Positions 16,574 through 33,851 of a stretch of DNA of 64,000 nucleotides are shown here, in pieces (position 1 is the stretch's first letter; the number at the start of each line of letters is the position of its first letter). The position numbers and the translations under genes were made by a program. This DNA comes from Rivularia sp. MS3 (lineage in GTDB: Bacteria > Cyanobacteriota > Cyanobacteriia > Cyanobacteriales > Nostocaceae), in assembly GCA_019192545.1 (NCBI GenBank), contig JAHCMI010000009.1, positions 62,001-126,000 of the forward strand. Reading direction: 5' to 3'. The notes under the pieces were generated by a model that had not been told where the DNA came from, did not search any database, and saw only the letters and a program-made list of their open reading frames with translations.

Positions 16574-17172
16574 TCGTAATTTTATAAATTTGTGAATAAT
16601 TATATTGCCGTCATATTTGTTGAGGATGTGGCTATATATGACTTTTCGGTTAGATGCAATTTAGTCTTAATCTCTCTTTCCTGCAAGGGGAGAAGCTTTT
16701 ATTTTTATTCCCTTTCCCTTGCTCTTATGGTGCTGGGGGTTGGGTTTTTCATATATTAAATCAACTCGCTTCCCTCGAAGGAAGAAGTTTGAGAGGACTT
16801 GGCTATGGGCTTGAAACTTCCACCAAGTCGCTGTCGTCGTTGAATGAGGCTTGTATCCGGGGCAGAAGTGAGAAGATATAAAGCTCTGCTCATCTTCTTG
16901 CTCCCGTCTTCTTCCTTCTTCCCTGAAGCTCGAAGAGCTTCGGTCAAATAACTTTGTTAATGTAATCTTGAACGCAAATTAACACCGTTTTAATTTTATA
17001 TTCTTAATCTAATAGCAGCGATAATTATTAACCTTAATAGTCTAGTAATTTCCTAGCGTTATTAACAGCAAAATCCGAACATATGCTTTTACCTCCTTTT
17101 TGAAAAAGCCAAGGAGACGAAAAAGTATGTTTAAATATTCGCTACCTTAAATACATCAAAAGGAATATATAA
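16574..17172. promoter_or_regulatory. intergenic region with PHO-box candidate upstream of the GDPD gene
   Basis: Four 8-mers with an 11-bp period lie at 16956-16996: GTTAATGT (16956), CTTGAACG (16967), ATTAACAC (16978) and TTTAATTT (16989). This is the form of the cyanobacterial PHO box (consensus near CTTAACCT with 3-bp spacers) bound by the PhoB/SphR response regulator. The array is about 175-215 bp before the GDPD start. The first part of the gap (16574-16940) has open frames but nothing gene-like. Confidence 0.5.
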
Positions 17173-20022
17173 ATGGCGGTTAAATTAACAGGATTCGCAT
17201 CGTTACCGGCCGATACTTTTGCGGAAGGTTCTCCCGCAGGTGCTGATATTTCTGCCAACAGACGTACTGGACCTTTTGAAGGGCAGCCAGTTCAAGGCTT
17301 TAGTGGAGTTCAGTTTGCTCCTGGCAATAATAATTCTTACTGGTTCTTATCAGATAATGGTTTTGGTAATAAAAATAATAGCTCCGATTATCTATTGCGG
17401 ATTTATCAGTTAGATCCCGATTTTAAAAAAGCAAACGCAGGCAATGGAACTATTGAGGTTGAAAAGTTTATTCAACTTTCCGATCCCGATAATTTGATTC
17501 CTTTCGATATAGTTAATGATGATTCCCCGCAACGGTTTTTAACTGGTGCGGATTTTGATATTGAATCTTTTGTAATTGCTAACGACGGCTCGATTTGGGT
17601 AGGGGATGAGTTTGGCCCATTTTTACTTCACTTCGACTCGACGGGAAAGTTGATTGAAGCGCCGATTGCAACTCCAAATTTAGCTACAAGCGATGAACCT
17701 GTAGTTCGTTCTCCCCAAAATCCCGAAGTACTTTTCAACACCCTCGATGGAAAACCACCCTTAGTTATAGCTCACCGTGGTGCTAGCGGGGAATTACCAG
17801 AACATACTTTGGAAGCTTATCGCCGCGCTATTGTTCAAGGTGCTGACTTTATCGAACCGGATTTAGTAATTACTAAAGATGGGGTGCTAATTGCACGTCA
17901 CGAACCAATGTTGGATGATACTACTAATGTAGCTGAGGTATTTGGAGAGGAGCGTAAATCCACAAAAATTCTTGATGGAGAGGAAGTAACGGCTTATTTC
18001 GCTGAAGATTTTACTTTAGCTGAAATCAAACAGTTGCGAGCGGTTCAGTCTCGGGATTTCCGTAGTGATGAGTTTGACGGTGAATTTGAAATTCCTACTT
18101 TTCAAGAAGTTATCGAACTAGTACAGCAACAAGAAGCGGAAACCGGGGAAAAAGTTGGAATATATCCGGAGACAAAACACCCGACTTATTTCGATAATCA
18201 AGGTTTATCTTTGGAAGAGCCGTTAATTCAAACTTTGCAATCAACTGGCTTTACCGACTCGGACAGAATTTTTATTCAGTCTTTTGAAGTTGCCAATCTT
18301 CTAGACTTACAAAATAATCTGCTTCCGGATGCTGATTTATCAGATTTACCTTTAGTGCAGCTTTACGGGGATGTGGAAGACGAGTTTATCAACGAAAACG
18401 GGGGTGGTTTTTCGGTACCTTACGATATTGTCGCGAATTTTAGCAATCCCGATTTTGATGAAGCTGATGCAAAAGCTATTTATGGCGATTTTGTGAGTGT
18501 AGTTCCCGATTTTGGTAAAGATGTCACCGGTGATGGAATTCCGGATACGACTTATCAAGATTTAGCCACCAAGGAAGTCTTTGATTACATCGGTGAAACC
18601 TACGCTGAAGGTGTTGGCCCTTGGAAAAACAGTTTTGTGTTAAGGGAATCTATAGATAATCCCGTCGATGCAAATGGTGATGGAAATGCACAAATCACCA
18701 CCCAACTCACCGGAGAAATTCGTCCTTATGTGGAATGGGCGCATGATGCGGGTATGCAAATTCATCCCTACACTTTAAGAAATGAAGAACGCTTCCTGAC
18801 TTTAAACCCCGACGGTACCGTGCAAACTCCTGAAGGTGAATTCGAGCAGTTTATCGAATTAGGTGTGGATGGTTTCTTCACCGATTTCCCCAAAACTGGA
18901 AGAATTGCCCTCGATCGAGAAATTGTCCCCTCAAATCTTCCTGCATCTCGCGGTTTTGAAGGAATGGCTTTTAGTCCAGACCGCAAAACCTTATATCCTT
19001 TATTAGAAGGTGCTGTGGAAGGAGACCCATCAGATGCTTTAAGAATCTATAAGTTTGATGCCACAACTAGTAACTACACTGGTTTAGTTGGTTTCTATCA
19101 AACCTCAGTTCCCGGTCATGCAATCGGTGATTTCGCTCCTATCAACGATTCAGAATTTTTAGTGATAGAGCGTGATGGGAACCAAGGTGATGCAGCCCAA
19201 TTCAAGAAGATTTTTCAAGTTGATATTACCAAGGTAGACGAAAACGGTTACGTTGAGAAAGAAGAAATAGTCGATTTATTGAATATCCAAGACCCCAACG
19301 ATTTGAATAGTGATGGTGAAACTACTTTTTCATTCCCCTTTGTTACCATCGAAGATGTTTTAGTTATTGACGAAAACACAATTTTAGTCGCGAACGACAA
19401 TAATTATCCCTTTTCCACCGGACGCGATGAGGGTATCGATAATAATGAAGTCATCCTCCTAGAGTTAGATAAACCTTTGGATTTAGACCCCCGTTTAGGT
19501 AGAAGTGTGATGGAGAACGAAGAATCTAAGCTAATTTCGGGTAGCGGCGATAAAGATTTATTTATTTCTAGAAGCAACTTCGAGGGTGATAATAACATCC
19601 TCTTTGCTGGTTCTGGTGATGATGAGATTGATTTAGCTTTTGGTGGCAGCAACAACCGAGTTGATGCTGGTAGCGGAGATGATATAGTTTACCTCGGCAA
19701 CAAAAACCGCGTACTCGGTGGTAAAGGTAACGATAAATTCTTTGCATCCGGCGGTGATAACATCATATCTGGTGGCGGAGGTGCAGACCAATTTTGGATT
19801 GTCACCGGAGAAATTGCCGACTCTAAAAACACCATCGTTGATTTTGAAATTGGCAGCGACGTAATTGGTATTTTGGGTAGTTCGAGCCTCGGTATCGATG
19901 CAAATACCTTAATGCTCAAGGAAATCAATGGCAATACTGAAGTTAATTTCAACAATCAAACTTTAGCAATGCTTAACGGCGTGACTGGTTTAGATATTGA
20001 CACCAGCGTTGTATTTGCTTAG
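17173..20022 (+). CDS. secreted glycerophosphodiester phosphodiesterase nested in a phytase-like propeller, with RTX-like module
   Basis: Protein of 949 residues without signal peptide. Residues ~1-185 and ~590-775 look like the two halves of an esterase-like-phytase beta-propeller (F-S-G-V-Q-F-A and G-F-E-G-M-A-F-S-P-D are cognate strands). Between them, ~195-580, sits a complete GlpQ-type GDPD: A-H-R-G-A-S-G with H201, E228-P-D230, and R-H-E-P with H243. The GDPD would release glycerol-3-phosphate from glycerophosphodiesters; the propeller might act on phosphoesters. The C-terminal ~165 residues are the RTX-like module shared with neighbouring proteins. A PHO-box array upstream supports induction by phosphate starvation. 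The enzyme most likely acts outside the cell after type I secretion. Confidence 0.88.
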   Translation: MAVKLTGFASLPADTFAEGSPAGADISANRRTGPFEGQPVQGFSGVQFAPGNNNSYWFLSDNGFGNKNNSSDYLLRIYQLDPDFKKANAGNGTIEVEKFIQLSDPDNLIPFDIVNDDSPQRFLTGADFDIESFVIANDGSIWVGDEFGPFLLHFDSTGKLIEAPIATPNLATSDEPVVRSPQNPEVLFNTLDGKPPLVIAHRGASGELPEHTLEAYRRAIVQGADFIEPDLVITKDGVLIARHEPMLDDTTNVAEVFGEERKSTKILDGEEVTAYFAEDFTLAEIKQLRAVQSRDFRSDEFDGEFEIPTFQEVIELVQQQEAETGEKVGIYPETKHPTYFDNQGLSLEEPLIQTLQSTGFTDSDRIFIQSFEVANLLDLQNNLLPDADLSDLPLVQLYGDVEDEFINENGGGFSVPYDIVANFSNPDFDEADAKAIYGDFVSVVPDFGKDVTGDGIPDTTYQDLATKEVFDYIGETYAEGVGPWKNSFVLRESIDNPVDANGDGNAQITTQLTGEIRPYVEWAHDAGMQIHPYTLRNEERFLTLNPDGTVQTPEGEFEQFIELGVDGFFTDFPKTGRIALDREIVPSNLPASRGFEGMAFSPDRKTLYPLLEGAVEGDPSDALRIYKFDATTSNYTGLVGFYQTSVPGHAIGDFAPINDSEFLVIERDGNQGDAAQFKKIFQVDITKVDENGYVEKEEIVDLLNIQDPNDLNSDGETTFSFPFVTIEDVLVIDENTILVANDNNYPFSTGRDEGIDNNEVILLELDKPLDLDPRLGRSVMENEESKLISGSGDKDLFISRSNFEGDNNILFAGSGDDEIDLAFGGSNNRVDAGSGDDIVYLGNKNRVLGGKGNDKFFASGGDNIISGGGGADQFWIVTGEIADSKNTIVDFEIGSDVIGILGSSSLGIDANTLMLKEINGNTEVNFNNQTLAMLNGVTGLDIDTSVVFA

Positions 20023-20029
20023 ACGAAAT

Positions 20030-20060
20030 TATAGAGACGTAAAGTAATTATGTCTCTATA
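20030..20060. terminator. hairpin after the GDPD gene
   Basis: TATAGAGAC at 20030-20038 pairs with GTCTCTATA at 20052-20060 just after the stop codon. It looks like a diverged member of the GAGACGTAGC hairpin family found after other island genes. Confidence 0.45.
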
Positions 20061-20392
20061 AATCAATCAAAAATAGCAAAATATTTGATTATTTTTTATC
20101 AAAAAATAAATTATTTATTAAATAACAGTTATTCATTTCTACAGCTAACATATTAGCTTTAAATATTGCTATAGCTTGCTCGATAACAGCATTATCGGTT
20201 TTTTTTATCAATTATATATAAGTCATATCTAATTGCCAAATAAGTTCTTAACCTCTGGCAATCAAAACATTTGACGTAAAACAACAGCATAATTAGTATC
20301 TTTTTTATTTATAACATAATTATTCAACTTATCTTTAAAATACTTCCGCAGTAAGAAAAAATATTTTTCAATATCTAATAAGCAAAAATAAA

Positions 20393-20433
20393 CTTTACTC
20401 ATTTTTAACCTAGATTTAACTCGATAATAAGTA
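20393..20433 (+). promoter_or_regulatory. PHO-box candidate upstream of the tandem AP-fold gene
   Basis: Repeated 8-mers at an 11-bp period: CTTTACTC (20393), TTTAACCT (20404), TTTAACTC (20415) and a weaker AATAAGTA (20426). The second unit is one base from the PHO-box consensus CTTAACCT. The array ends about 110 bp before the start codon. The rest of the gap 20061-20541 is AT-rich with no gene. Confidence 0.6.
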
Positions 20434-20541
20434 TTTAAAAACAGTTTCTATATATCTTGTAGTTATAGCTTCAATTGTGCCAAGTAAGATTTATTACTTG
20501 TCAGTCAACAATTAAAAACTCATAGGCATTTTATAAAAAAT

Positions 20542-23500
20542 ATGAAGACGGGTAATCACGTTATTTTCGTTCACCCAGATGGAACTAGTCCATCTCACTA
20601 TGCGATCGCCAGATTTGTCCAAGAAGGTCCTGATGGCAGATTGAACTGGGACAAATTGGAAAATGCTGGAGTCTACCTGGGTCATATGGAAGACCAGCTT
20701 GGTGGAACTTCCAATGGTGGTGCAGTGACTCATGCAACTGGTGCTAAAGTCTATGCAGAATCTTTCGGTTTAGAGGAAGACGGTTCTGAAATTACTCCCT
20801 TATCGGGTAAAACTGGTAAAACCATCGTCCAGGAAGCAGTTGCAGCTAACAAAGTGACCGCACTAGTACAGTCTGGAGCAATTTACGAACCAGGTACTGC
20901 TGCATTTGTCGCTCAAGTTGGTGAGACAGTTGATGAACAAGGAAATCGTATTCCTCCCCGTGGAAGAACTGGTGATATTACAAAGCAAGTAATTGAATCT
21001 GGAGTTGATTTTATCCTTGGTGGTGGAGAAGCAGCACTTCTACCCGAAGGTACCGACGGTTTTCACGGTAGTGCTGAAGAACTCGACGAACTTGGTTCTC
21101 GCTTGCAACGTCCCGATGAAAATTTAATCGAATTAGCCGAAAAAAATGGTTATACCGTAGTTTATACAGAAGAACAACTTAACGATTTACTAGATTCCTC
21201 AAAATACCCCGAACCACCAACTAAAGTTTTGGGTGTATTCGCTCCCATCCATACCTTTAACGACCGTCCGGAAGAAGTTTTACAAGAGAGAGGACTACCT
21301 TTATATCTGGAAACTGCTCCAACAATCGGTGAAATGCTCGCGGTCACTCAGCAGTTAATGGAGCAGCATCCCAACTTTGATAACGGTTCCATAGCAATTG
21401 TGGAAGAAGAAGGAACCGACAATTTTGGTAATAACAATAATTCTTCGGGAACCCTCGAAGCTATGATTCGGGGTGATGCAGCAATTGGGGAAGCCCTCGA
21501 ATTTGTTGATAAATATCCCAATACTTTAGTAATAACTGCTGCCGATAGCGATGCCGGTGGTTTAGAAGTACGAGACCCCCTCGAATCTGGAGAACCTGTA
21601 GGCACAATCAACGCCAATCCTACTACCGAACCCCGTCCCGTACCTCTTGACGGTGTAGATGGTGCCAATACTTTACCGTTTACTGCTGCACCTGATGCCA
21701 ATGGAGATGTATTTAACTTCGGTATAGGTTGGGTTGGTACTCCTGATTTTCCCGGTGCAATTGTTTCTAAAGCTTCGGGATTAAATGCAGATAAACTCCC
21801 TGCCACGGTAGATAATACCGGGATATATGAGTTGATGTATGAAACCTTATTCGACACCGAACTAGAATCCCGCGTCCCCGCACCGACACCTGCACCGGAA
21901 GCCACGAAAGATACAGGAAACGTCATCTTTATTCATCCCGACGGTACCAGTCCTTCCCACTTTATGGCATTGCGGAATATTGAAGAAGGTCCCGACGGAA
22001 GGCTCAACTGGGATAAAATGTCTAATGCCGGTGTATATCTAGGACATATGGAAGACCGATTAACGGGTACTTCCAACGGAGGAGCAGTAACTCACGCCAA
22101 CGGAGTCAAGGTATTTAACGAATCCTTTGGTTTAGATAAGAATAATAATCAGATAACTCCGGCTTCCGGTAAAACCGGATTTACGATATTAGAAGAAGCG
22201 ATCGCCGCCGGAAAATCAACTGCTTTGATTCAATCTGGTGACTTAGGAGAACCGGGAACCGCCGCCTTTGCTGCTGCAACTACAAACCGTGACGGTGACG
22301 ATATCCGCGCTCGCGATAAAGCTGCCGAAATCATCGAACAGGTAATCCGCTCGGGAACCGATGTAATTATGGGTGGTGGTGAGCTATATATGCTACCCAT
22401 CGGTACGACGGGATTCCACGTTACCCCAGAAATTGACGCTTCCGAAACTCGTCCCGAACGTCGTCCCAGCATCAATTTGATTGAACTAGCTGAGTCTTTG
22501 GGTTATACCGTGGTATATACCGAAGACCAAATGAACGAAGCTGTAAATAGCGATAATCCTCCTGAAAAGCTGCTTGGTGTATTCTCTGCTGACGATACCT
22601 TTGACGATCGCACTGAAGAAGAACTTGGTTTAAATACCGATACACCATTACCTTTATACGTTGAAACGGCACCCACCGTAGCAGAGATGCTTGATGCATC
22701 TTTGAAAATAATTGAAGATGATCCAGATGGATTCTTTGCAGTAGTTGAGGAAGAAGGTACCGATAACTTCGGTAATAACAACAATGCAGTCGGTACAATT
22801 GAAGCCATGCGTCGTGCAGATGCAGCGATTGGGGAAGCCATAGATTACATCGACAATCAAGACCCCAACACGCTTTTAGTTACCGCCGCAGACAGCGGTG
22901 CGGGTGGACTAGAAGTATTTCAATACAAACCTTACGACCGTCCCAACGGTAATTTTGATGAAGATAATCCCGAATTATCGTCTCAGCCAGAAGTTCCTTT
23001 TATCAACGTTAATCCTACCATTGAAAGAGACGATGTTAATTACCTCGATGGTGTTGATGGAAGTACCGCAAGCGAGGAAAATCCTTGGGTACCATTTTCA
23101 GCAAAAGATAGTCTCGACGGAGAAATGGGTAACTTCGGTATCGGTTGGGTAGGTACTCCCGATGTTCCCGGTAGCATTGTTGCCAAAACCTACGGAATGA
23201 ATGCCGAGGAATTACCCAGCACCGTAGATAATACCGGAATATACGACATTATGTATAAAACGCTGTTTGGTATTACACCAGAAGAAGCAGCAGAACAACA
23301 GCAAACAGAAATTAATTTAGTTTCTGGAACTGGTGAAGATGATATTTTAGTTGCTGGAATTGACTTCAAAGGTAACCGAAACAGCGTATTTACTGGCGCT
23401 GGTGACGATGAAATCGATTTAGCATTCGGTGGAAGTAAAAACCGCGTTGATGCTGGAAGCGGCAATGATGTAATTTACTTAGGAAATCAAAACCGCGTAC

Positions 23501-23808
23501 TTGGTGGTGCTGGTGATGATAAATTCTTTGCATCCGGTGGTGGTAATATCATCTCTGGTGGTGCAGGTGCAGATCAATTCTGGATTGTTACCGGAGAAAT
23601 TGCTGACTCTAAAAACACCATCGTTGATTTTGAAATTGGTACCGATGTAATTGGTATTTTAGGAAGTGCAAGTTTAGGAATTAATGCTAGTACTTTAGAA
23701 TTGACTGAAATGGATGGTAATACTAAAGTTGCATTTGGCGAAAATACTTTAACAATGCTTAACGGCATTACTGGCTTGGATATTGATACCAGCTTTGTAT
23801 TTGCTTGA
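20542..23808 (+). CDS. tandem two-domain alkaline-phosphatase-fold protein with divergent active sites and RTX-like module
   Basis: Protein of 1088 residues: two homologous AP-superfamily domains (about 1-445 and 455-915) and a C-terminal RTX-like secretion module (about 920-1088). No signal peptide: the first AP strand (V-I-F-V-H-P-D-G-T-S) starts at residue 7. The metal aspartates are kept (D13, D293, D335; domain 2 D741, D784), but the histidines of canonical APs are replaced: N297 and N745 stand where H would follow D by four residues, and S336 and S785 replace the H after the TAD aspartate. The usual D-S-A nucleophile motif reads T-S-N-G-G (S57-N58; S511-N512), and the W-S-H-H motif is absent. 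Both halves share the changes, which argues for a distinct conserved family rather than decay. Activity is uncertain. A PHO box lies upstream. Confidence 0.82.
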   Translation: MKTGNHVIFVHPDGTSPSHYAIARFVQEGPDGRLNWDKLENAGVYLGHMEDQLGGTSNGGAVTHATGAKVYAESFGLEEDGSEITPLSGKTGKTIVQEAVAANKVTALVQSGAIYEPGTAAFVAQVGETVDEQGNRIPPRGRTGDITKQVIESGVDFILGGGEAALLPEGTDGFHGSAEELDELGSRLQRPDENLIELAEKNGYTVVYTEEQLNDLLDSSKYPEPPTKVLGVFAPIHTFNDRPEEVLQERGLPLYLETAPTIGEMLAVTQQLMEQHPNFDNGSIAIVEEEGTDNFGNNNNSSGTLEAMIRGDAAIGEALEFVDKYPNTLVITAADSDAGGLEVRDPLESGEPVGTINANPTTEPRPVPLDGVDGANTLPFTAAPDANGDVFNFGIGWVGTPDFPGAIVSKASGLNADKLPATVDNTGIYELMYETLFDTELESRVPAPTPAPEATKDTGNVIFIHPDGTSPSHFMALRNIEEGPDGRLNWDKMSNAGVYLGHMEDRLTGTSNGGAVTHANGVKVFNESFGLDKNNNQITPASGKTGFTILEEAIAAGKSTALIQSGDLGEPGTAAFAAATTNRDGDDIRARDKAAEIIEQVIRSGTDVIMGGGELYMLPIGTTGFHVTPEIDASETRPERRPSINLIELAESLGYTVVYTEDQMNEAVNSDNPPEKLLGVFSADDTFDDRTEEELGLNTDTPLPLYVETAPTVAEMLDASLKIIEDDPDGFFAVVEEEGTDNFGNNNNAVGTIEAMRRADAAIGEAIDYIDNQDPNTLLVTAADSGAGGLEVFQYKPYDRPNGNFDEDNPELSSQPEVPFINVNPTIERDDVNYLDGVDGSTASEENPWVPFSAKDSLDGEMGNFGIGWVGTPDVPGSIVAKTYGMNAEELPSTVDNTGIYDIMYKTLFGITPEEAAEQQQTEINLVSGTGEDDILVAGIDFKGNRNSVFTGAGDDEIDLAFGGSKNRVDAGSGNDVIYLGNQNRVLGGAGDDKFFASGGGNIISGGAGADQFWIVTGEIADSKNTIVDFEIGTDVIGILGSASLGINASTLELTEMDGNTKVAFGENTLTMLNGITGLDIDTSFVFA

Positions 23809-23845
23809 TATTTGATTGATAGTTGCGTTGTTTGTGTAATGTTAG

Positions 23846-24192: not shown

Positions 24193-24222
24193 TTTAACAC
24201 AATCTTAAACTTAGGTTCATAC
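24193..24222 (+). promoter_or_regulatory. PHO-box candidate upstream of alkaline phosphatase 1
   Basis: TTTAACAC (24193), CTTAAACT (24204) and GTTCATAC (24215) are spaced 11 bp apart and end about 75 bp before the start codon. The rest of the gap 23869-24298 is AT-rich with no gene. Confidence 0.6.
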
Positions 24223-24298
24223 TCTAAGATAAGCAATACTAATTAACTGTATTCCCACCTAAAAAGCTACAAAAAATATACATAGGCATTTAACTACA

Positions 24299-26755
24299 AT
24301 GGCTAAAAACGTCATTCTTATGATTGGTGATGGTATGGGCTGGGAAATAGCTCGTGCTGCGGCTATTCAAAAACAAATTACTCAAGGTAAAACTGGTGCA
24401 ACTCTCACCGATTTTTATACTGAAGGTAAAGGTACGGGATTAAGTTTCCAGGAATTAGATAAGTATGCGATCGCAACTACTAGCGGAACTTACATAGATG
24501 GAGACAAAAGTAATTCTGCATTAAAAGGCGATACTCTCGAACGGGAAACTGGTGTTGCAGTTGTTCGTGAAGGATTTGATTCGGAAAACTTGCCTGGTGA
24601 AGATGCTGACGGAGAATTTGAGCCTGCCCAAGTAATCGGTTTCTTCCCCGAACTACGTGAAGGTAGTATTGCGCCAATTTTAGACGAATTTGACCCCAAC
24701 TTTGACGAAAGACCAATATTTGCAGAAAACGAAGATGGGGAACTTATACAAGTAGGTGGATTCCTTAATGCTTACGACACTAGCAAAGGTCGGGATTTGC
24801 CTTGGTTGAAAGATGAAGATCCCGACTATCCCAAAAACCTTTTTCCCGACTCTGCAAATACTGCGACTACTTTATATTCGGGAATTAAAACCTACTCTGG
24901 TGCCATCGGTGTTGACATCTATGAAGATGATATTCAAACCATTGGTCAAAAAGCCAGAGAACAAGGTAAATCATTTGGTGTAGTCAGTTCCGTTCCTTTC
25001 AACCATGCGACTCCTGGCTCTGCTGTTGGTAAAGTCAGCCAGCGGAATAAGTTAACCACAACTTCCAGAGTCGAAAATTTTAAAGTTGCTTTAAATGAAA
25101 ACGGCGTACCTCTTCACGAAGAACATGGTGATGGTTCTCACGAAGGCGAACCCGTATTTGAATTAGATGAAAATGGCAACAAAATTCTCATTGAAGATGA
25201 TAATATTCTCTACCAAATCCTTAACGAAACTCAACCAGAATTAGTTCTTGCTGGCGGACATCCAGATGGTCGCGGTGATGAGCGCTACATGGATTTGGAA
25301 ACTTTAGAAAAGCTGCGTAATGGTGAAACTGTTTATACTTTTACCGAGCGCGGTGAAAATGCTGCGGAAACTCTAGCAAAAGTTGCTTCAGAAATAGACG
25401 TTGAACAAGGGGAAAAACTATTTGGTCTTTATGGTGCTAGAGGACAAGGTGGAAACCTACCTTGGAGTACTGCCAACGGTGACTACAGTAACGCTGGTTT
25501 AAGCAGTCGTTTGGATACGGTACGTCCATTAGAAGAAGGAGAAACCGACGAAGAATTTATTGCTTCCGAACAAGATGCGAATCCTACTTTAGCTCAATTA
25601 ACCGAAGCAGCTTTAGACGTTCTCGGAGATGACGAAGATGGTTTTTGGGTTTCTATCGAAGGTGGTGATATTGACTGGGCTGCTCACGACAACAACCTAG
25701 ACAATATGATTGGAGCAACTTTGGATTTTGCAGATTCAGTAGAAGTTGTTCAGAATTGGATTGAGGAAAATGGCGGTTATGAAGAAAACCTACTTATAGT
25801 TACAGCCGACCACGACCACTATCTAACTTTAAACGAAGACTTCCCCGAACTATTGCGCGAAAAAGGTGCAGAAGCTCTGACTACTGCTGTTGATGACAAT
25901 GGTAACGTTTTAGCGACTGAAGTTGACCAAGCTGGTGTAGCTTTAGAAGAACCGCGAAAAATTGATAACCTCGATCCAGAAGCATCCGGACATTATTGGG
26001 GTAGTAATCCCGATGTTAAAGTAGGTTGGTCGCATCATACTACAATTCCCGTTCCCGTATATTATCAAGGTGCCGGTAGCGAATTTTTAGATAATTCTGT
26101 AGGTAAAGGTTTTGAGCAATATGGCTTTGAAGTACCAGGTATTGAAGGTTTAATCGACCAAGTTCACATTGCACAAGCTCAATTTGCTGCCTTTGAAAAT
26201 AAAAATATACCTGATACACCCGATACACCTAGCTCCGGTTCAGATAGTAATACACCTACTTTAGTTCCAGGAACAACAGAAGCCGATACTTTAATTGCAG
26301 GTATTGACTTCAAAGGAAATGGTAATACTATTTTTGCTGGTGCTGGAGATGATGAAATTGATTTAGCATTCAGTGGTGGAAGTAAAAACCGCGTTGATGC
26401 TGGCAGCGGCAACGATATAATTTATTTGAGCAACCAAAACCGCGTACTTGGTGGTAGTGGTGACGATAAATTCTTTGCAACCGGTGGTGGTAATATCATG
26501 TCTGGTGGTGCAGGTGCAGATCAATTCTGGATTGTCACCGGAGAAATTGCTGACTCTAAAAACACCATCGTTGATTTTGAAATTGGTACCGATGTAATTG
26601 GTATTTTAGGTAGTTCGAGCCTCGGTATTGATGCAAATACCTTAATGCTCAAGGAAATCAATGGCAATACTGAAGTTAATTTCAACAATCAAACTTTAGC
26701 AATGCTTAACGGCATTACTGGCTTAGATATTGATACCAGCTTTGTATTTGCTTGA
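24299..26755 (+). CDS. secreted alkaline phosphatase with RTX-like module
   Basis: Canonical PhoA-type alkaline phosphatase of 818 residues that hydrolyses phosphomonoesters. All key residues are visible: D11 in G-D-G-M-G, nucleophile S185 in P-D-S-A-N-T-A-T-T, F-N-H-A-T-P-G-S, E454-G-G-D-I-D459-W-A-A-H463, D504-H505 in T-A-D-H-D-H, and H579-H580 in W-S-H-H-T-T. It is longer than E. coli PhoA because of acidic inserts. There is no signal peptide; residues ~640-818 are the RTX-like module, so export by a type I system is expected. The AP domain is closely related to that of the protein at 31440, which carries a different C-terminus. A PHO box lies upstream. Confidence 0.93.
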   Translation: MAKNVILMIGDGMGWEIARAAAIQKQITQGKTGATLTDFYTEGKGTGLSFQELDKYAIATTSGTYIDGDKSNSALKGDTLERETGVAVVREGFDSENLPGEDADGEFEPAQVIGFFPELREGSIAPILDEFDPNFDERPIFAENEDGELIQVGGFLNAYDTSKGRDLPWLKDEDPDYPKNLFPDSANTATTLYSGIKTYSGAIGVDIYEDDIQTIGQKAREQGKSFGVVSSVPFNHATPGSAVGKVSQRNKLTTTSRVENFKVALNENGVPLHEEHGDGSHEGEPVFELDENGNKILIEDDNILYQILNETQPELVLAGGHPDGRGDERYMDLETLEKLRNGETVYTFTERGENAAETLAKVASEIDVEQGEKLFGLYGARGQGGNLPWSTANGDYSNAGLSSRLDTVRPLEEGETDEEFIASEQDANPTLAQLTEAALDVLGDDEDGFWVSIEGGDIDWAAHDNNLDNMIGATLDFADSVEVVQNWIEENGGYEENLLIVTADHDHYLTLNEDFPELLREKGAEALTTAVDDNGNVLATEVDQAGVALEEPRKIDNLDPEASGHYWGSNPDVKVGWSHHTTIPVPVYYQGAGSEFLDNSVGKGFEQYGFEVPGIEGLIDQVHIAQAQFAAFENKNIPDTPDTPSSGSDSNTPTLVPGTTEADTLIAGIDFKGNGNTIFAGAGDDEIDLAFSGGSKNRVDAGSGNDIIYLSNQNRVLGGSGDDKFFATGGGNIMSGGAGADQFWIVTGEIADSKNTIVDFEIGTDVIGILGSSSLGIDANTLMLKEINGNTEVNFNNQTLAMLNGITGLDIDTSFVFA

Positions 26756-27033
26756 TATTTGATTGATGGTTGCGTTGTTGGCGTGATTGTGGAGGCGTAG
26801 CAGTGCTATGTCTCTACACAACTAAATCATCAAAATCTTGTGGGATGGGCATCCTTGCCCGTCTAAATATACTTCACCAATATGAAATGTGTTGTAATTA
26901 TAATTAAATCTCAAATTGAATTTGGGTTACGACGCATTTCTACACTTTGTTTGAGCATAAAAATTATTTTTGCGCCTAACCCAACCTACAAACTACAAAC
27001 TACGAAGCCTTAAACAAAAAGCCCCCTTTTTTA
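26756..27033. other. intergenic region between phosphatase gene and insertion sequence
   Basis: The first ~25 bp continue the near-identity with the downstream flank of the tandem AP-fold gene (23809-23833). A degraded GGCGTAGCAGTGCTATGTC hairpin follows near 26790. Around 26920-27000 a GGGTTACGACGC and a GCGCCTAACCC segment form an imperfect long inverted repeat common in cyanobacterial spacers. Confidence 0.4.
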
Positions 27034-27192
27034 ACTTACATCTTGCATCTAACCCAGTAAACCCTGAAAAGCAAAATAAAGGGTATCAAAATGTAACCAT
27101 AAATGAAGTGTATTAATTAAGTACAGCGAAGTTATTTATAAACTTAAATCCTAGTATTATTACATAATATTTTTTTTCAAATTATCTAAGAT

Positions 27193-27221
27193 GCAGCGAT
27201 GATGCTTTTCATCATCGCTGC
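27193..27221. repeat. perfect hairpin inside the insertion sequence leader
   Basis: GCAGCGATGATG, loop CTTTT, CATCATCGCTGC: a 12-bp perfect stem between the left repeat and the transposase start. It could block read-through transcription into the transposase gene. Confidence 0.5.
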
Positions 27222-27339
27222 GGTGCGATACGCGAAGCGTCGCCCTTCGGGCTATCGCCAATTTTAAATAACGGATTTGCTTTGAAAGTAGAAAATGTGA
27301 GAGAAAGGGCGTGAAATATCGAATTTTTAAAGCAATCAA

Positions 27340-28455
27340 ATGCTTGCCCACGCCCAAGAGCTAGTCTACACCCTCAAGGAATTGATGCCTACGCAATACC
27401 AGAAAGATAATCTTGAAACAATGCTGGGATTATTTTTAGAAGCACAAGGACATCCATTACCAGAACACTCGAAAACAAAATCTGCTAGTGCTTTGAGTCG
27501 ATTTTTAAATCTTAACTCATGGTCAACACGGAAGATAATTCGTGAAATTCGCACTAAAATATTAGAGGTAGTTTTAAAAGCTTTGTATGAAGAAAGCAGA
27601 GGGCGTAGACCGTTTTTACAAGTAATTGTTGATCTTACTACCCTTGAAAAACGAGGTAAGTTTAAAGATTTTGAGCATTTAATCTCAGTTTATAACGGTA
27701 AAAGAGGATTACACTTAGTAGTACTATATCTGGTTGTTGGAAAGTGGCGAATTCCTTGGAGTTTCAAAGTTTGGAGGGGTAAGGGTACACCTTCACAAGC
27801 ACAATTGGGGCTGAAATTAATTAAAGCTTTACCAAAACTATTGACCAAACACTTTCAGGTGATGATTTTAGCTGATACAGCTTTTGGTAGCATAGATTTT
27901 TTACATGGTATCCGCAAGCTTAAATATCATGCTATCACAGGTCTTTCTATTAGCCGTAAGTTAGTTGATGGAAGAGTTTTAAGGCATTTGCACAAACAAG
28001 GACAACAGGTGCATTTAGTCGGTTTAGATTTTCCTGTTACTGTAGCTTGGTATTATCTCAAACGAGAAAACGGAAGACTCGAAAAAAGATTTGTTTTATC
28101 GACCTTACCTTTAAAAGCTAGCACAATTAAATGGTGGGGAAAACGTAGATGGCAGATTGAGGGGTGGTTTAAAACTGCAAAACATCGTTTTGGTTTACAT
28201 CGTTTTGGTCAAAAAACTTTAATCGGAATGTATCGTTGGCTAATTCTTTCTTTTATTGCTTATTTTATAGTCCATTGGACTTACTTATCAACTCAGTTGC
28301 CATTGCCACCTGATTGGGGCGAAGCTGCTCAAACTGCCCTTGAATCTTTTTTCTGCTCACAAGTTGTGTCTCTTCTTTTACTTAACATTGACCGATTAAT
28401 TCCTCTTGCACGTAGTTGTGGTTTTGACATCCAAATTTTCAGGTGCAAGATGTGA
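27340..28455 (+). CDS. IS4-family DDE transposase
   Basis: Transposase of 371 residues. The DDE triad can be placed at the aspartate of V-D-L-T-T-L, the aspartate of I-L-A-D-T-A-F-G-S, and the glutamate of R-R-W-Q-I-E-G-W-F-K-T-A-K-H, which is the Y/W-x2-E-x-W-F-K signature of IS4-like elements. The frame is intact, so the element may still be active. The N-terminal part (L-K-E-L-M-P-T-Q-Y-Q-K) is a DNA-binding-type helical region. The ORF ends within the right terminal repeat. Confidence 0.88.
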   Translation: MLAHAQELVYTLKELMPTQYQKDNLETMLGLFLEAQGHPLPEHSKTKSASALSRFLNLNSWSTRKIIREIRTKILEVVLKALYEESRGRRPFLQVIVDLTTLEKRGKFKDFEHLISVYNGKRGLHLVVLYLVVGKWRIPWSFKVWRGKGTPSQAQLGLKLIKALPKLLTKHFQVMILADTAFGSIDFLHGIRKLKYHAITGLSISRKLVDGRVLRHLHKQGQQVHLVGLDFPVTVAWYYLKRENGRLEKRFVLSTLPLKASTIKWWGKRRWQIEGWFKTAKHRFGLHRFGQKTLIGMYRWLILSFIAYFIVHWTYLSTQLPLPPDWGEAAQTALESFFCSQVVSLLLLNIDRLIPLARSCGFDIQIFRCKM

Positions 28456-28457
28456 GT

Positions 28458-28704
28458 CTGTGCCCTCTGCGCTCTCTGCGGTTTTTTTCATCCGTTAATA
28501 AACTACCACATTAATTTTGAGGGGTGAAGCGAAGCGCAACCCAACATCCGAGTTGGGTTACACTGCGTTTCACCCACCCTACAAATTCTATTGCTTTACC
28601 CTTGATAACTTATGTGGTGGAGTACTAATAGGGTTTTTCAATAATTCCGGTGTAACCGGAATTGATATAAGGATGAGGGAGTTAACCCCATATTTCAAAG
28701 TTAA
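28458..28704. repeat. intergenic inverted repeat
   Basis: At 28519-28575 GGGTGAAGCG and CAACCCAAC pair with GTTGGGTTA and TTTCACCC, a long imperfect hairpin typical of dispersed cyanobacterial spacer repeats. A TCTCTGCGGTTTTTTT string (near 28480) and an ACCGGAATTGATATAA string (near 28650) are shared with 14640-14700. Confidence 0.5.
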
Positions 28705-30630
28705 TTAAGCAAGAGCAAAATTATCTACACTCAAACTATCAGAATTCAGATTTTGTAAAATCGCTATATCCGAACCATCAAAAGCGATTAGAGTATTTTG
28801 ACCGTTTTGGGTAATATCAATATCTTCAAACCCAACACCTAAACCAGAAATATCAATTAAATCATCATCAACCTTGAAATCAACGATTTTATCCGTACCT
28901 TCATTTAGTTTCAGCACAAATACATCCTTACCAACGCCACCATTGAGACTATCATCACCCAAACCACCTGTTAGAGTATCATTACCAGCATCACCCCAAA
29001 TTTGGTCATTGCCAGCGTCACCGAAAATCATATCGTTACCAGCTTTACAACCAATGCGATCGCTACCCATTCCACCATAAATAGTGTCATTTCCTCCAAT
29101 ACTTCCACCACTTGAACGATTATTTAAATCCCCTCTTAAAACATCATCACCACCTTGTCCAAAAATTAAATCATCACCCAATCCCCCAGCTAAGGTATCG
29201 TTTCTATCTTCACCAGCAAGAGTATTATCTGCTTTATTCCCTACCATGACATCGTTTTCTTCTTTAACTACATCGCCATAACGCAAAAAATTAAGCAAAT
29301 CATTGAATTCGTCTTGATTCGATGGGTTATCAATCAACTCAAAAAACTTTTCTTCGTTTACAGCCTCATAATTAAACTCTGCAAGTGTATTTTCATTAGT
29401 AGCTAAAGCAATTAAATCAGCTTTGTTATCAATTCCATCAATCGCATCAATCAAACCATCAACAAAATTGCTGTCAAAAGAATTAAATAATGCTTCCGGA
29501 GTTATATTATTTGTTTCACCGAATAGAGTTTTACTAACAGCAGAGAATATAGAATCGGTAGGCAATATAACAGCTTGAGAATCTATCTGATTTACGAAAA
29601 CAGTAATGGTTGTATCGCTTTCGGGGAAATATCGCATTTTACTGATATAGCCAAAGGTTCCGCCATCGTGCCCCCAATTTTCTCCCCAAGGGGTTGGTTC
29701 TTCGTATACACCATTACCATATTGACTACCTACTTCTACTTCCCCTTCGTCAATACTTGACCATGAAAGCATGTTATTAATACTTTCAGGTTTTAATAAT
29801 TTGCCGCTAAATAACGCATCGCTAAAACGAGCTACATCTTTGCTATTGGAAACAATTCCACCATCACTTAAGGTTGAAGCAAGAGAAGAAAAGCTATCCC
29901 TAGTATCTTCATAAATACCATCTGCACCCAAACTTCCATCTTCCCCAATCAAATCTCCGTAACCCCTAACGAATCTTTCATCTGGGATGTCGTCTCCAAC
30001 AAAATAAGTGTTGTCTAATCCCAGAGGTTCTAAAATTAAACGATTCACTTCATCTTGATAAGAATTACCTGTAGCAGCTTCAATCAACATTCCTAACAAA
30101 AGGTAATTAGTATTGGAATAGAAGAAAGATTCTCCAGGTGCGAAATAAGCATCTTCTCCCGAAACATAATTTTCCAGAATCGCTTCGCGACTTCTATCGA
30201 TATCTGCACCGTTAAACACTGCTAATTCATCTATGGCGAATTGAGGGTTACTTGTATAGCTGAAAATACCGCTAGTATGATTCAATAATTGCTCAACGGT
30301 AATTTCTTTAGCATTGGAGATATTCGCGATAGTAGAATCTGGCAGCCATTTATCTAAAGTATCTTGCAAACTAAGCTTTTGTGCTTCCACTAATTTAAAG
30401 ATAGTTGCACCCGTAAATGTTTTACTGACACTACCTATCTTAAATAAATCATCTGGATTCATAGATTTCTCAGTCTCCAAATTAGAAACCCCACTCGCAC
30501 CGTACCAAGTTCCTTCAGGGCTGATAATACCAACAGTGACACCAGGTATTTCCATAGTTTGTACTGCTGAATCGATAGTTGCTTGTAACTGTTGAGCTAA
30601 ATCGGAAGAAATATTGTTATTCATGTTCAT
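28705..30630 (-). CDS. secreted beta-lactamase-fold serine hydrolase with RTX repeats
   Basis: Protein of about 641 residues from the ATG at 30630 (an AAGGA lies just upstream; the frame is open back to 30660). Residues ~10-360 form a class C beta-lactamase/DD-peptidase/esterase fold: S-V-S-K supplies the SxxK nucleophile motif, Y-S-N the YxN motif, and G-H-D-G-G the HxG motif. Such enzymes are more often esterases or D-aminopeptidases than antibiotic-hydrolysing enzymes. From ~465 there are classical RTX nonapeptides (G-G-L-G-D-D-L-I-F, G-D-A-G-N-D-Q-I-W) and a serralysin-like end (I-V-D-F-K-V-D-D-D-L-I-D-I-S). No signal peptide; type I secretion expected. It is the only large minus-strand gene in the island. 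Confidence 0.87.
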   Translation of the reverse strand: MNMNNNISSDLAQQLQATIDSAVQTMEIPGVTVGIISPEGTWYGASGVSNLETEKSMNPDDLFKIGSVSKTFTGATIFKLVEAQKLSLQDTLDKWLPDSTIANISNAKEITVEQLLNHTSGIFSYTSNPQFAIDELAVFNGADIDRSREAILENYVSGEDAYFAPGESFFYSNTNYLLLGMLIEAATGNSYQDEVNRLILEPLGLDNTYFVGDDIPDERFVRGYGDLIGEDGSLGADGIYEDTRDSFSSLASTLSDGGIVSNSKDVARFSDALFSGKLLKPESINNMLSWSSIDEGEVEVGSQYGNGVYEEPTPWGENWGHDGGTFGYISKMRYFPESDTTITVFVNQIDSQAVILPTDSIFSAVSKTLFGETNNITPEALFNSFDSNFVDGLIDAIDGIDNKADLIALATNENTLAEFNYEAVNEEKFFELIDNPSNQDEFNDLLNFLRYGDVVKEENDVMVGNKADNTLAGEDRNDTLAGGLGDDLIFGQGGDDVLRGDLNNRSSGGSIGGNDTIYGGMGSDRIGCKAGNDMIFGDAGNDQIWGDAGNDTLTGGLGDDSLNGGVGKDVFVLKLNEGTDKIVDFKVDDDLIDISGLGVGFEDIDITQNGQNTLIAFDGSDIAILQNLNSDSLSVDNFALA

Positions 30631-30663
30631 AAATTCCTTGTACAAAAATGATGTAGACATGTT

Positions 30664-30909
30664 TTATGGAAACAGCATCGTTGCTTTCACTTTCAAGCCT
30701 TTTTCATCCGAAGTCACAAAAGTATATACAACAGTATCATCGCTAGGAATACAAGCAGGCAAATGTATACTTAAACCAGACGGTAGTTCCAAAGCGATGT
30801 CATTGATTAAAGGCTTAAATATATTTGCGAGTTCTCCATGTACCGAGGCAATGTCAGTAAAAAAGTTGGCAGACAATACCCAAATACTTGCAAATAAATT
30901 AGTCTTCAT
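30664..30909 (-). CDS. small hypothetical protein, possibly truncated
   Basis: An 81-residue frame just upstream of the hydrolase gene on the same strand. The middle (A-L-E-L-P-S-G-L-S-I-H-L-P-A) followed by V-V-Y-T-F-V-T-S-D-E-K-G-L reads like a folded domain rather than a shadow, but it stops abruptly and I cannot name it. An opposing plus-strand frame overlaps it. It may be a gene remnant. Confidence 0.3.
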   Translation of the reverse strand: MKTNLFASIWVLSANFFTDIASVHGELANIFKPLINDIALELPSGLSIHLPACIPSDDTVVYTFVTSDEKGLKVKATMLFP

Positions 30910-31287
30910 TTTCCTCTGATTCTTCTTATCTAATAAGACTCTTTAGTAAGTTAACTTTAGATATTCATGTTTCAATATTGTCTATGGTCATACATATTTA
31001 TGACTAAAGTCACCATAGGTTATTTACTTTATCTATATCTCAAATAATTAATCTTGAAGCGGATGAATAAATATTTACTAAAGAATAAATACAGATAACA
31101 AATGAAAGAAATATAATATCCCCTGAATCTCTTACCCAAACTTAGGTTAATAAAAGTCTGCGAATTCAACCTACCTTCGATGGCTTTGTGTCAACAACCC
31201 CACTGCCGGGAACAAAGCAAATAACCACTGTCTCGTAAATCAAAATTTTCATTATGCAGCAGTTGAAAAACAAATTAAATTCATATT

Positions 31288-31317
31288 TTTAAACTGTATT
31301 TAATATTTATTTAACTA
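31288..31317 (+). promoter_or_regulatory. PHO-box candidate upstream of alkaline phosphatase 2
   Basis: TTTAAACT (31288), TTTAATAT (31299) and TTTAACTA (31310) are spaced exactly 11 bp apart, about 125-150 bp before the start codon. The match to consensus is weaker than at 20404, but the period is the same. The rest of the gap 30910-31439 is AT-rich without a recognised gene. Confidence 0.45.
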
Positions 31318-31439
31318 GGTAATGAAACACTTATTAACAGTTGAATCAGTATTTATTCGGAGAAAAGTATTCTGAATAACTAGCGACTGCTTTTATTTTC
31401 AAGCCGGATATAAATACTTAAATAGGGGAATTATCACCA

Positions 31440-33851
31440 ATGGCTAAGAACGTCATTATCATGATTGGGGACGGTATGGGCTGGGAAATGGCTCGTGCTG
31501 CTGCAATTCAACAGCAAATTAATGATGGTGCAGAAGGTAACACTTTAAGCGATTTCTATACTGAAGGTACTGGAACTGGTTTAAGCTTCCAGGAGTTAGA
31601 TGGTTATGCAATTGCGACTACCAGCGGAACCTATATCGATGGAAGTAAAAGCAATTCTGCATTAAAAGGTAATACTCTTACACGTGAAACTGGTGTTGCA
31701 GTTGTTCGTGAAGGATTTGAACCAGAAAATCTGCCCGGTGAAAATGCCGACGGAGAATTCGATCCAGCACAAGTACTTGGGTTTTTCCCGGAAGAACGCG
31801 AAGGTAGCATTGCGCCTATTTTAGGCGAATTCGACCCCGGTTTCGATGAAAGTCCAGTATTTGCAACAAATGCAGATGGAGAACTAGTTCAAGTCGGCGG
31901 ATTCCTTAATGCTTATGACCTTGACAAAGGACGTGATGTACCTTGGGAAGAAGATGAAGATCCAGACTATCCCAAAAACCTTTTCCCTGACTCTGCCAAT
32001 ACTGCCTCTACTTTATATTCTGGAGTTAAAACCTACTCTGGTGCAATCGGTGTTGATATCTACGAAGATGATATTCAGACCATTGGAGAAGTAGCTAGAG
32101 AACAAGGGAAATCCTTTGGTGTTGTTAGTTCAGTTCCTTTCAACCATGCTACTCCCGGTTCTGCGATTGGTCACGTCTCTCAGCGTAATAAGCTAACTGC
32201 AACTTCCAGAGTCGAAAACTTTGAAGTCGTATTGGATGAAAACGGCGTACCCCTTCACGAAGAACACGGTGATGGTTCTCATGAGGGCGAACCCGTATTT
32301 GAACTTGATGAAAATGGTAATCCGATTCCCGTTAAAGACGACAACATCCTTTTCCAAATCCTCGAAGAAACTCAGCCAGAAGTAGTTCTAGCTGGCGGAC
32401 ATCCCGATGGTCGTGGTGATGAGCGCTACATGGATTCGGAAACTTTAGAAAAGCTACGTAATGGTGAAACTGTTTACACTTTCACTGAAAGAGGTGAAAA
32501 TGCTGCACAAGTTTTAGCAGATACCGCAGCAGAAATTGACGTTGATGCAGGGGAAAAATTATTCGGTCTTTATGGTGCTAGAGGACAAGGTGGAAACCTT
32601 CCTTGGAGTACTGCAAATCGTGATTATAGCAACACAGGTTTAAGTAGTCGTTTGGATGCAGTACGTCCTTTGAAAGAAGAGGAAACTGGCGAAGATTTTA
32701 TTGATTCTGAAGTCGATGCAAACCCCACTTTAGCAGAATTGACATCTGCTGCTTTAGATGTACTCGGAGACGACGAAGATGGTTTCTGGGTTTCAATCGA
32801 AGGTGGTGATATTGACTGGGCTGCTCATGACAACAACCTAGACAATATGATTGGTGCAACTTTGGATTTTGCTGATTCAGTAGAAGTTGTACAAGATTGG
32901 ATTGCAGAGAATGGTGGTTATGAAGAAAATTTACTTATAGTCACTGCCGATCACGACCACTATTTAACGCTCAACGAAAACTTCCCCGAATTGCTCCGCG
33001 AAATGGGTGCAGAAGCTCTCACCACTTCAGTTGACGAAAATGGTAACGTTTTAGCTACTGAAGTTGATAATAATGGTGTAGCTTTAGAAGAACCCCGAAA
33101 AGTTGATAATCTTGATCCAGATGCATCAGGACATTATTGGGGCAGCGATCCAGAAGTTAAAGTGGGCTGGTCGCATCATACTACAATTCCCGTTCCTGTC
33201 TATTATCAAGGTGCAGGTAGCGAGTATTTAGACAATGCTATAGGTGAAGGTTTCGAGCAGTATGGTTTTGACGTACCTGGAGTCGATGGCTTAATCGACC
33301 AAGTTCACATTGCACAAGCTCAGTTTGCTGGTTTTGCATTCGATGTTCCAGTCACAGAAGCAGAAGAAAACGAAGGATTTAAAGATAACTATCTTGACTG
33401 GAGTGGTTTCAATGGTGATGTAGAAGTAACATACACTATCAGCAGAGAAGCTGATTTCGATAATAACGTTTACTTCTATTCTGTTGATGATATGACAGGT
33501 GCTATTGCTGGAGTAGAAGCTGGAACTGACGATTATTTAGAAGCTGTACTAGGTAATATCATTACTCCTGCATTATCAACTACCGATGATAATCAAGAAA
33601 CTGGAAAGTTAGTTAATATGGAAGCCGGTAGCATTATCGGTACAATGATTATTGCTGACGGTACCTTAGAAGATGCACAAAACGATGATGCAAGTGTTTA
33701 CTTCTCATTTGGTAGCAGCAATGATGGTTTTGACCATATTAGACTTAAAGAAGGTACAAACAACGTACTAGAGTATGAAGACTTACCTAGCGGTGGTGAT
33801 GCGGACTTTGATGACTTGAAAATTGAATTTACTGGTTTTAAAAGCATGTAA
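31440..33851 (+). CDS. secreted alkaline phosphatase with DUF4114 C-terminus
   Basis: PhoA-type alkaline phosphatase of 803 residues, a close paralogue of the 24299 product over residues 1-~640, with every catalytic motif kept (G-D-G-M-G, P-D-S-A-N-T-A, E-G-G-D-I-D-W-A-A-H, T-A-D-H-D-H, W-S-H-H-T-T). Similarity ends after V-H-I-A-Q-A-Q-F-A; instead of the RTX-like module it has a DUF4114 domain (about 655-803) ending G-G-D-A-D-F-D-D-L-K-I. DUF4114 also terminates the proteins at 36602 and 46352, and its D-rich loop suggests calcium binding. No signal peptide; type I secretion inferred. A PHO-like array is upstream. Confidence 0.92.
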   Translation: MAKNVIIMIGDGMGWEMARAAAIQQQINDGAEGNTLSDFYTEGTGTGLSFQELDGYAIATTSGTYIDGSKSNSALKGNTLTRETGVAVVREGFEPENLPGENADGEFDPAQVLGFFPEEREGSIAPILGEFDPGFDESPVFATNADGELVQVGGFLNAYDLDKGRDVPWEEDEDPDYPKNLFPDSANTASTLYSGVKTYSGAIGVDIYEDDIQTIGEVAREQGKSFGVVSSVPFNHATPGSAIGHVSQRNKLTATSRVENFEVVLDENGVPLHEEHGDGSHEGEPVFELDENGNPIPVKDDNILFQILEETQPEVVLAGGHPDGRGDERYMDSETLEKLRNGETVYTFTERGENAAQVLADTAAEIDVDAGEKLFGLYGARGQGGNLPWSTANRDYSNTGLSSRLDAVRPLKEEETGEDFIDSEVDANPTLAELTSAALDVLGDDEDGFWVSIEGGDIDWAAHDNNLDNMIGATLDFADSVEVVQDWIAENGGYEENLLIVTADHDHYLTLNENFPELLREMGAEALTTSVDENGNVLATEVDNNGVALEEPRKVDNLDPDASGHYWGSDPEVKVGWSHHTTIPVPVYYQGAGSEYLDNAIGEGFEQYGFDVPGVDGLIDQVHIAQAQFAGFAFDVPVTEAEENEGFKDNYLDWSGFNGDVEVTYTISREADFDNNVYFYSVDDMTGAIAGVEAGTDDYLEAVLGNIITPALSTTDDNQETGKLVNMEAGSIIGTMIIADGTLEDAQNDDASVYFSFGSSNDGFDHIRLKEGTNNVLEYEDLPSGGDADFDDLKIEFTGFKSM

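What the first reader, a model, noticed from the sequence alone, without database searches (positions are those of the whole stretch)
16956..33851. Phosphate-starvation exoenzyme island with PHO-box-like arrays before four genes
A GDPD/phytase-like protein, a tandem AP-fold protein and two canonical alkaline phosphatases lie close together. All lack signal peptides and carry C-terminal secretion-type modules. Upstream of each are 8-mers resembling CTTAACCT at an exact 11-bp period (16956/16967/16978/16989; 20393/20404/20415; 24193/24204/24215; 31288/31299/31310). The sequence shows the periodic repeats; PHO boxes of this form are known for the cyanobacterial SphR/PhoB regulator. I infer a coordinated phosphate-scavenging secretome.
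Basis: partly seen in the sequence, partly recalled or inferred. Interest (0 to 1): 0.85.

Follow-up and report, generated by a model that had tools for sequence, protein, structure and literature searches.

The report
Phosphate-starvation enzyme island with exporter
A cyanobacterium carries a block of genes for secreted enzymes that probably strip phosphate from organic matter, beside genes for a likely export machine and with matching phosphate-starvation switches in front of several of them; one enzyme is a double alkaline phosphatase whose usual zinc-holding histidines have been replaced.

Summary
With a matrix from published cyanobacterial Pho boxes, the arrays at 20393 and 31288 rank first and second in the window. 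Orthologues support the tandem-phosphatase array (35 of 79 named loci score 12 or more at 11 bp, 1-3 of 79 at other spacings, 14 of 356 control genes) and the GDPD array (10 of 13 genomes at 11 bp, at most 2 of 13 otherwise). The array at 24193 is not distinguishable from chance. A strict pattern is not enriched genome-wide. The island is larger than reported: a HlyB/HlyD type I exporter lies at 40777-45513, preceded by a fifth, weaker array whose core is kept in the genus. Three cargo proteins share a C-terminal RTX-like module that seems to recombine between genes. The most unusual part is the tandem phosphatase: nucleophile Ser and acidic metal ligands are kept, but His331 is Asn and His370 is Ser in 185 of 185 domains, and the His412 position is probably Asp. 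Best reading: SphR/PhoB-controlled phosphate scavenging through a type I exporter. Expression, export and activity were not tested.

The parts
16956..16996 (+). four Pho-like boxes at 11-bp period before the GDPD gene
   Evidence: TTAA-type cores kept in G006 and G005; GDPD upstreams of 13 genomes, window included, 10 of 13 at 11 bp
17173..20022 (+). GDPD domain inserted in phytase-like domain, C-terminal RTX-like module, 949 aa
   Evidence: phytase-like part without the insertion in G052
20393..20422 (+). three Pho-like boxes before the tandem phosphatase
   Evidence: rank 1 in window; aligned in the window and four same-genus relatives, a further one scores 18.0; 79-locus test
20542..23808 (+). 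tandem alkaline-phosphatase-fold protein with replaced zinc-ligand histidines, C-terminal RTX-like module, 1088 aa
24193..24222 (+). octamers at 11-bp period before alkaline phosphatase 1; not shown to exceed chance
   Evidence: orthologue in G006 10.9, p 0.100, in a nearly identical upstream region
24299..26755 (+). alkaline phosphatase 1, usual zinc ligands kept, RTX-like module, 818 aa
28705..30660 (-). beta-lactamase-fold (serine hydrolase/esterase-like) protein with RTX repeats; no Pho-like array in 5 of 5 genomes scanned
31288..31317 (+). three Pho-like boxes before alkaline phosphatase 2
   Evidence: rank 2 in window; shuffle p 0.002; a related gene in G005 scores 18.1
31440..33851 (+). 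alkaline phosphatase 2, DUF4114 C-terminal module, 803 aa
34420..35640 (+). GDSL lysophospholipase-like protein; Pho-like arrays before its larger homologues in G001 and G004, not in the window or G005
36602..38830 (+). CAP + Calx-beta + DUF4114 protein
39677..39717 (+). four weak Pho-like boxes at 11-bp period before the exporter genes
   Evidence: TTAACC core aligned in 8 of 8 same-genus genomes; not significant in the window alone
39730..40536 (+). PPIC-type peptidyl-prolyl isomerase, first gene of the exporter group (start codon uncertain)
40777..43833 (+). HlyB-type type I secretion permease/ATPase with cyclic-nucleotide-binding domain
   Evidence: TIGR01846 752.8 bits, cut-off 725.55
43963..45513 (+). 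HlyD-type membrane fusion protein
   Evidence: TIGR01843 244.4 bits, cut-off 208.65
12521..14347 (+). weak Exo_endo_phos match with a related C-terminal module; possible further cargo
   Evidence: upstream array not significant
15308..16573 (+). unknown N-terminal part with a related C-terminal module; possible further cargo
   Evidence: no array

Best explanation
A Pho-regulon island. When phosphate runs out, the SphS/SphR (PhoR/PhoB-type) pair activates genes carrying tandem 8-bp Pho boxes at 11-bp period: GDPD-phytase, tandem phosphatase, alkaline phosphatase 2 and, more weakly, the isomerase-HlyB-HlyD exporter genes. The exporter recognises the C-terminal modules and moves the enzymes, which lack signal peptides, in one step to the outside, where diesters, monoesters and perhaps phospholipid pieces are hydrolysed and the phosphate is taken up. 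Shown: sites, conservation, domain make-up, synteny. Inferred: binding, induction, export by this exporter, and enzyme activity.
For: Array statistics and spacing specificity; box cores 13 of 15 columns invariant against 2 of 6 linker and 62 of 130 other columns in five genomes; exporter gene families over their cut-offs; gene order shared with G005, G001 and G003 including the exporter; exporter array aligned in six genomes, one of them Calothrix sp. NIES-4101, where the exporter genes lie about 4 kb from the tandem phosphatase, and TTAACC core kept in 8 of 8 same-genus genomes; regulator-kinase pair; high-scoring 'control' genes near tandem phosphatases include what look by eye like a PstS, large endonuclease/exonuclease/phosphatase-like proteins and a PhoX-like protein. 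In Synechocystis a PhoB-controlled cluster is reported to hold a type I secretion gene and an RTX gene, and mutating any of three TTAA cores reduced or abolished binding (PMC11126600, passages read).
Against: The array at 24193 is not above chance. The exporter array is not significant in the window alone; in the window and in G004 the best-scoring site lies elsewhere, about 310 nt upstream. 44 of 79 tandem-phosphatase loci score under 12, and the three picocyanobacterial-type loci L169-L171 score below zero. The strict pattern is not enriched in the genome. None of nine PstS-like genes of this genome has a significant three-box array. An isomerase homologue occurs in 58 of 60 genomes, and in G006 the 98% identical isomerase gene lies about 0.9 Mb from the phosphatases, so the exporter is not tied to this cargo everywhere. 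The regulator scores below the PhoB cut-off (241.6 against 296.2 bits).
Confidence: 0.8

Rival explanations
1. The arrays are AT-rich background; the genes cluster for another reason and are not Pho-controlled.
For: AT-rich upstreams; strict pattern not enriched genome-wide; 24193 not above chance; 44 of 79 orthologous upstreams score under 12.
Against: Spacing control: 35 of 79 at 11 bp, 1-3 of 79 at each of eight other spacings; 14 of 356 controls. GDPD 10 of 13 against at most 2 of 13. The beta-lactamase-fold gene inside the island lacks arrays in 5 of 5 genomes.
Confidence: 0.07
2. The boxes are bound by another OmpR-family regulator rather than SphR, for example the RpaB-like regulator at 54497 in the window.
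For: A regulator of the same family lies in the window, best model RpaB, below its cut-off; the genome has many matches to the PhoB model. Direct repeats are typical of the whole family (recalled).
Against: The boxes fit the published SphR profile and lie before phosphate genes across many genomes.
Confidence: 0.1
3. Pho control is real, but the exporter at 40777-45513 is a general housekeeping exporter and the enzymes leave by that or another route; the neighbourhood says little.
For: An isomerase homologue is found in 58 of 60 relatives (the ABC and HlyD genes themselves were not searched there); separated from the phosphatases in G006.
Against: Synteny in three same-genus genomes and neighbourhood in Calothrix sp. 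NIES-4101; Pho-like array before the exporter genes.
Confidence: 0.3

Closest known systems
Cyanobacterial Pho regulon and SphR boxes (PMC1906773; section 6 with Table 1 and passages read)
   Same: 8-bp boxes, 3-bp linkers, at least three copies, before phosphatase and pst genes
   Different: Here the set includes several RTX-tagged enzymes and probably the exporter genes, clustered in one place
PhoB-controlled type I secretion/RTX cluster of Synechocystis (PMC11126600; passages read)
   Same: PhoB control of a cluster with a type I secretion gene and an RTX gene
   Different: There the RTX protein is described as exotoxin-like; here the RTX-tagged cargo looks like phosphatases and a diesterase
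GDPD plus phytase protein of Nodularia spumigena, nsp6490 (PMC3610870; passages read)
   Same: GlpQ-type and phytase domains in one protein
   Different: Two GlpQ domains there, one here; 'pho box' does not occur in that paper's main text
Escherichia coli alkaline phosphatase PhoA (PDB 1alk and others)
   Same: Fold, nucleophile Ser and acidic metal ligands in the tandem protein
   Different: Tandem, His331 to Asn, His370 to Ser, His412 probably to Asp, no signal peptide, RTX-like tail
PhoX and Psip1 (PMC11098088; abstract, part of the introduction and passages read)
   Same: Alkaline phosphatases found in cyanobacteria that need iron and calcium rather than zinc
   Different: Beta-propeller folds; the tandem protein has the PhoA fold

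Membership tests
Cyanobacterial SphR/PhoB Pho-box promoters | at least three 8-bp boxes with 3-bp linkers matching the published profile | tested here: met
   20393 and 31288 clearly, 16956 with orthologues; 24193 not
Cyanobacterial SphR/PhoB Pho-box promoters | conserved before orthologous genes | tested here: met
   tandem phosphatase and GDPD; not shown for 24193; for 31288 only one related gene, in G005, scores 18.1
Cyanobacterial SphR/PhoB Pho-box promoters | binding by SphR and induction on phosphate depletion | not testable with these tools
   needs footprints and transcripts
RTX type I secretion cargo - GDPD protein | C-terminal RTX repeats and no N-terminal signal peptide | tested here: met
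   PF00353 29.2 bits, cut-off 23; leader judged by eye
RTX type I secretion cargo - the three phosphatases | C-terminal RTX repeats and no N-terminal signal peptide | tested here: inconclusive
   phosphatase 1: 20.3 bits, below cut-off; tandem protein: serralysin-model match 26.6 bits and 80-86% identity of its tail to the others; phosphatase 2: DUF4114 instead; leaders judged by eye
Type I secretion system | HlyB-type ABC protein and HlyD-type adaptor together | tested here: met
   TIGR01846 and TIGR01843 over cut-off
Type I secretion system | TolC-type outer-membrane partner | tested here: inconclusive
   one TolC-like match in the genome, 138.6 bits, cut-off 225.15
Zinc alkaline phosphatase (PhoA) - tandem protein | AP fold with Ser nucleophile | tested here: met
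Zinc alkaline phosphatase (PhoA) - tandem protein | His331, His370 and His412 as zinc ligands | tested here: not met
   Asn 185 of 185, Ser 185 of 185 (profile alignment); at the His412 spacing Asp 184 of 185, one gap
Zinc alkaline phosphatase (PhoA) - genes 24299 and 31440 | all zinc ligands present | tested here: met
   24299: alignment to solved alkaline phosphatases through His370, His412 by reading; 31440: 84-86% identity to it and reading

The most novel reading that the evidence does not exclude
The tandem phosphatase belongs to a widespread cyanobacterial branch of the alkaline-phosphatase fold whose metal site has been rebuilt with oxygen ligands (Asp, Glu, Asn, Ser in place of three histidines), so that it works with calcium, magnesium, manganese or iron instead of zinc, as a single-chain fused pair of the usual homodimer, secreted under phosphate starvation in zinc-poor water.
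Probability: 0.35. Interest if true: 0.75.

Novelty: new variant of a known kind. Interest (0 to 1): 0.5.

Why it matters
Phosphate scavenging helps decide where cyanobacteria can grow. A regulated block of exoenzymes with its likely exporter is a ready test bed for how one secretion system serves several enzymes through a shared, recombining tail. A PhoA-fold phosphatase without the zinc histidines would add to PhoX and Psip1 a further route round zinc, and surveys that count every PhoA-type sequence as zinc-dependent would need correction.

Tried and rejected
First upstream scan read minus-strand loci in the wrong orientation; redone. The first 79-locus comparison put some starts on a neighbour (L178, L181, L159, L151) and gave an impossible position for L207; redone, where starts are still assigned automatically. 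In one search, 105 genes overlapping hits of island proteins were kept apart from the 356 controls (45 of those 105 score 12 or more), but that set includes tandem-phosphatase genes themselves and proves nothing separately. In the GDPD test 8 of 21 loci were left out because the aligned start lay inside a longer frame; on all 21, 10 had shuffle p of 0.05 or less. L009 and not L008 was taken as the SphR candidate because L008's best model is NblR, although L008 scores higher with PhoB. For alignment A2, 62 of 72 usable loci were given to the aligner. Psip1 was considered as the identity of the tandem protein and rejected: different fold. The first alignment had no conserved residue in its His412 column; the Asp reading rests on equal 11-residue spacing to a Gly, and the profile alignment does not reach it. 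The positions of Asp153, Thr155 and Arg166 are placed differently by the two alignments and are not used. No inverted repeats of 16 bases with 15 or more matches were found in the stretches tested round the transposase gene at 27340. Paper searches bearing on novelty. In the titles and abstract beginnings shown I saw no tandem or histidine-replaced PhoA-type protein; several lists were cut (20 of 40, 15 of 29, 10 of 391), and most subscription journals are not held.

Full report
Observation. The window (G000:C153:62001-126000 of a 9.19 Mb genome) is from a cyanobacterium, by its relatives. Named members of its GTDB genus include Plectonema cf. radiosum LEGE 06105 (G001) and Richelia sp. UBA3308 (G004), recognised by equal contig lengths, and Calothrix parasitica NIES-267 (G005), recognised by position and a contig length that differs by 100 bases. 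All 13 octamers are at the stated places with 11-bp period. A matrix from published sites (27 of 30 rows of Table 1, PMC1906773) ranks 20393 first (19.1) and 31288 second (17.8) among all three-box sites on both strands of the window; 24182/24193 come seventh/fourteenth and 16967 eighth.

Beyond chance. Upstream of the tandem phosphatase in 79 named loci the median best three-box score is 10.9, with 35 of 79 at 12 or more; for 356 other genes of the same loci the median is 2.7, with 14 of 356 (Mann-Whitney p 3e-21, the loci being related and so not independent). At any other period from 8 to 16 bp only 1 to 3 of 79 reach 12. For GDPD genes 10 of 13 genomes, window included, reach 12 at 11 bp and at most 2 of 13 otherwise. 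In five same-genus genomes box cores keep 13 of 15 columns, linkers 2 of 6, and the rest of the 160 nt 62 of 130. Against this: the array at 24193 scores higher at a 14-bp period (15.1) than at 11 bp (12.4); 44 of 79 tandem-phosphatase loci stay under 12; the three loci L169-L171 (Aphanothece, Synechococcus, Cyanobium) score below zero; and the strict three-box pattern gives 7 hits in the genome against 10 for its reversed control.

The island. Pfam and NCBIfam show a GDPD inserted in a phytase-like domain, a tandem alkaline-phosphatase protein, two alkaline phosphatases, a beta-lactamase-fold hydrolase, a GDSL lysophospholipase-like protein and further DUF4114 proteins, with a PPIC isomerase, an HlyB-type ABC exporter and an HlyD adaptor. 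Gene order is shared with G005, G001 and G003 including the exporter, and in part with G004; G006 keeps the GDPD, phosphatase 1 and tandem-phosphatase genes and has the isomerase elsewhere. Within 10 kb or less of the tandem phosphatase a GDPD domain is found in 25 of 79 named loci, many of them short contigs.

The exporter's promoter. Four weaker boxes at 39677, 39688, 39699 and 39710 precede the isomerase gene. The window's copy is not significant, but the array aligns in six genomes, the TTAACC core is kept in 8 of 8 same-genus genomes, and 9 of 30 genomes reach 12 at 11 bp against 0-3 at other periods, not always at the same place. The beta-lactamase-fold gene in the same island has no array in 5 of 5 genomes.

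Shared tail. The last 125 residues of GDPD protein, tandem phosphatase and phosphatase 1 are 80-89% alike within the window, while phosphatase 1's tail is only 77% like that of its G006 orthologue, although the whole proteins are 91% identical. This points to gene conversion or swapping of the tail between cargo genes. The GDPD tail, in contrast, is still most like its G006 orthologue (92%).

The tandem phosphatase. The two halves are 56% identical. In 185 domain sequences (179 distinct; some genomes are counted twice) Asp51 is kept in 182 and Ser102 in 183, the rest being gaps, and Glu322, Asp327 and Asp369 in 185; His331 is Asn and His370 is Ser in 185 of 185; Asp101 is Thr in 178. A profile alignment agrees for Ser102, Glu322, Asp327, His331, Asp369 and His370. 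The two alignments disagree on the Asp153/Thr155/Arg166 region, so nothing is claimed there beyond an invariant Glu nearby. The His412 equivalent, by equal spacing to a Gly, is Asp in 184 of 185, with one gap (tentative). Histidines 11 and 64 of the window protein are conserved at other places (182 and 183 of 185), so a different histidine site is not excluded. Strong conservation argues against a dead enzyme, but activity is not known.

Mechanism. SphR activated by SphS would bind the arrays and switch on enzymes and exporter; the exporter would move the tagged enzymes out, calcium would fold the RTX-like tails, and phosphate would be freed outside. A candidate regulator-kinase pair is present (L009). 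Precedent: a PhoB-controlled cluster with a type I secretion gene and an RTX gene in Synechocystis (PMC11126600, passages).

Verdict.

Noticed in passing
window 27340-28455: DDE transposase gene between phosphatase 1 and the beta-lactamase-fold gene; no flanking 16-base inverted repeats found in the stretches tested.
   Followed up: partly
window 54497-55345: OmpR-type response regulator, best NCBIfam model RpaB but below cut-off; two moderate Pho-like arrays on the minus strand at 55333 and 55419.
   Followed up: no
L193 2617-9370 and L197 3135-9378 (minus strand): Giant proteins (about 2,080-2,250 aa) that look by eye like endonuclease/exonuclease/phosphatase plus a DUF4114-like end, near the tandem phosphatase, with strong Pho-like arrays (21.8 and 18.2).
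   Followed up: partly
G001:C226:22426-28914 and G004:C154:16344-24506: Homologues of the GDSL gene lie in open frames of over 2,100 aa with Pho-like arrays (18.6 and 15.7) upstream.
   Followed up: no
G005 strip position about 64146-64697, that is G005:C1 about 219146-219697 (L120): A piece 87.5% identical to the DUF4114 tail of phosphatase 2 lies at the syntenic place; no phosphatase domain was matched beside it.
   Followed up: partly
L001 (G000:C114): Single-domain member of the same histidine-replaced phosphatase family with a lipoprotein-like N-terminus (by eye); weak array upstream (7.2, p 0.25).
   Followed up: partly
L018 (G000:C127), upstream of a PstS-like gene: Two pairs of Pho-like boxes in 11-bp phase separated by one poor box; not significant as a three-box array.
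   Followed up: no
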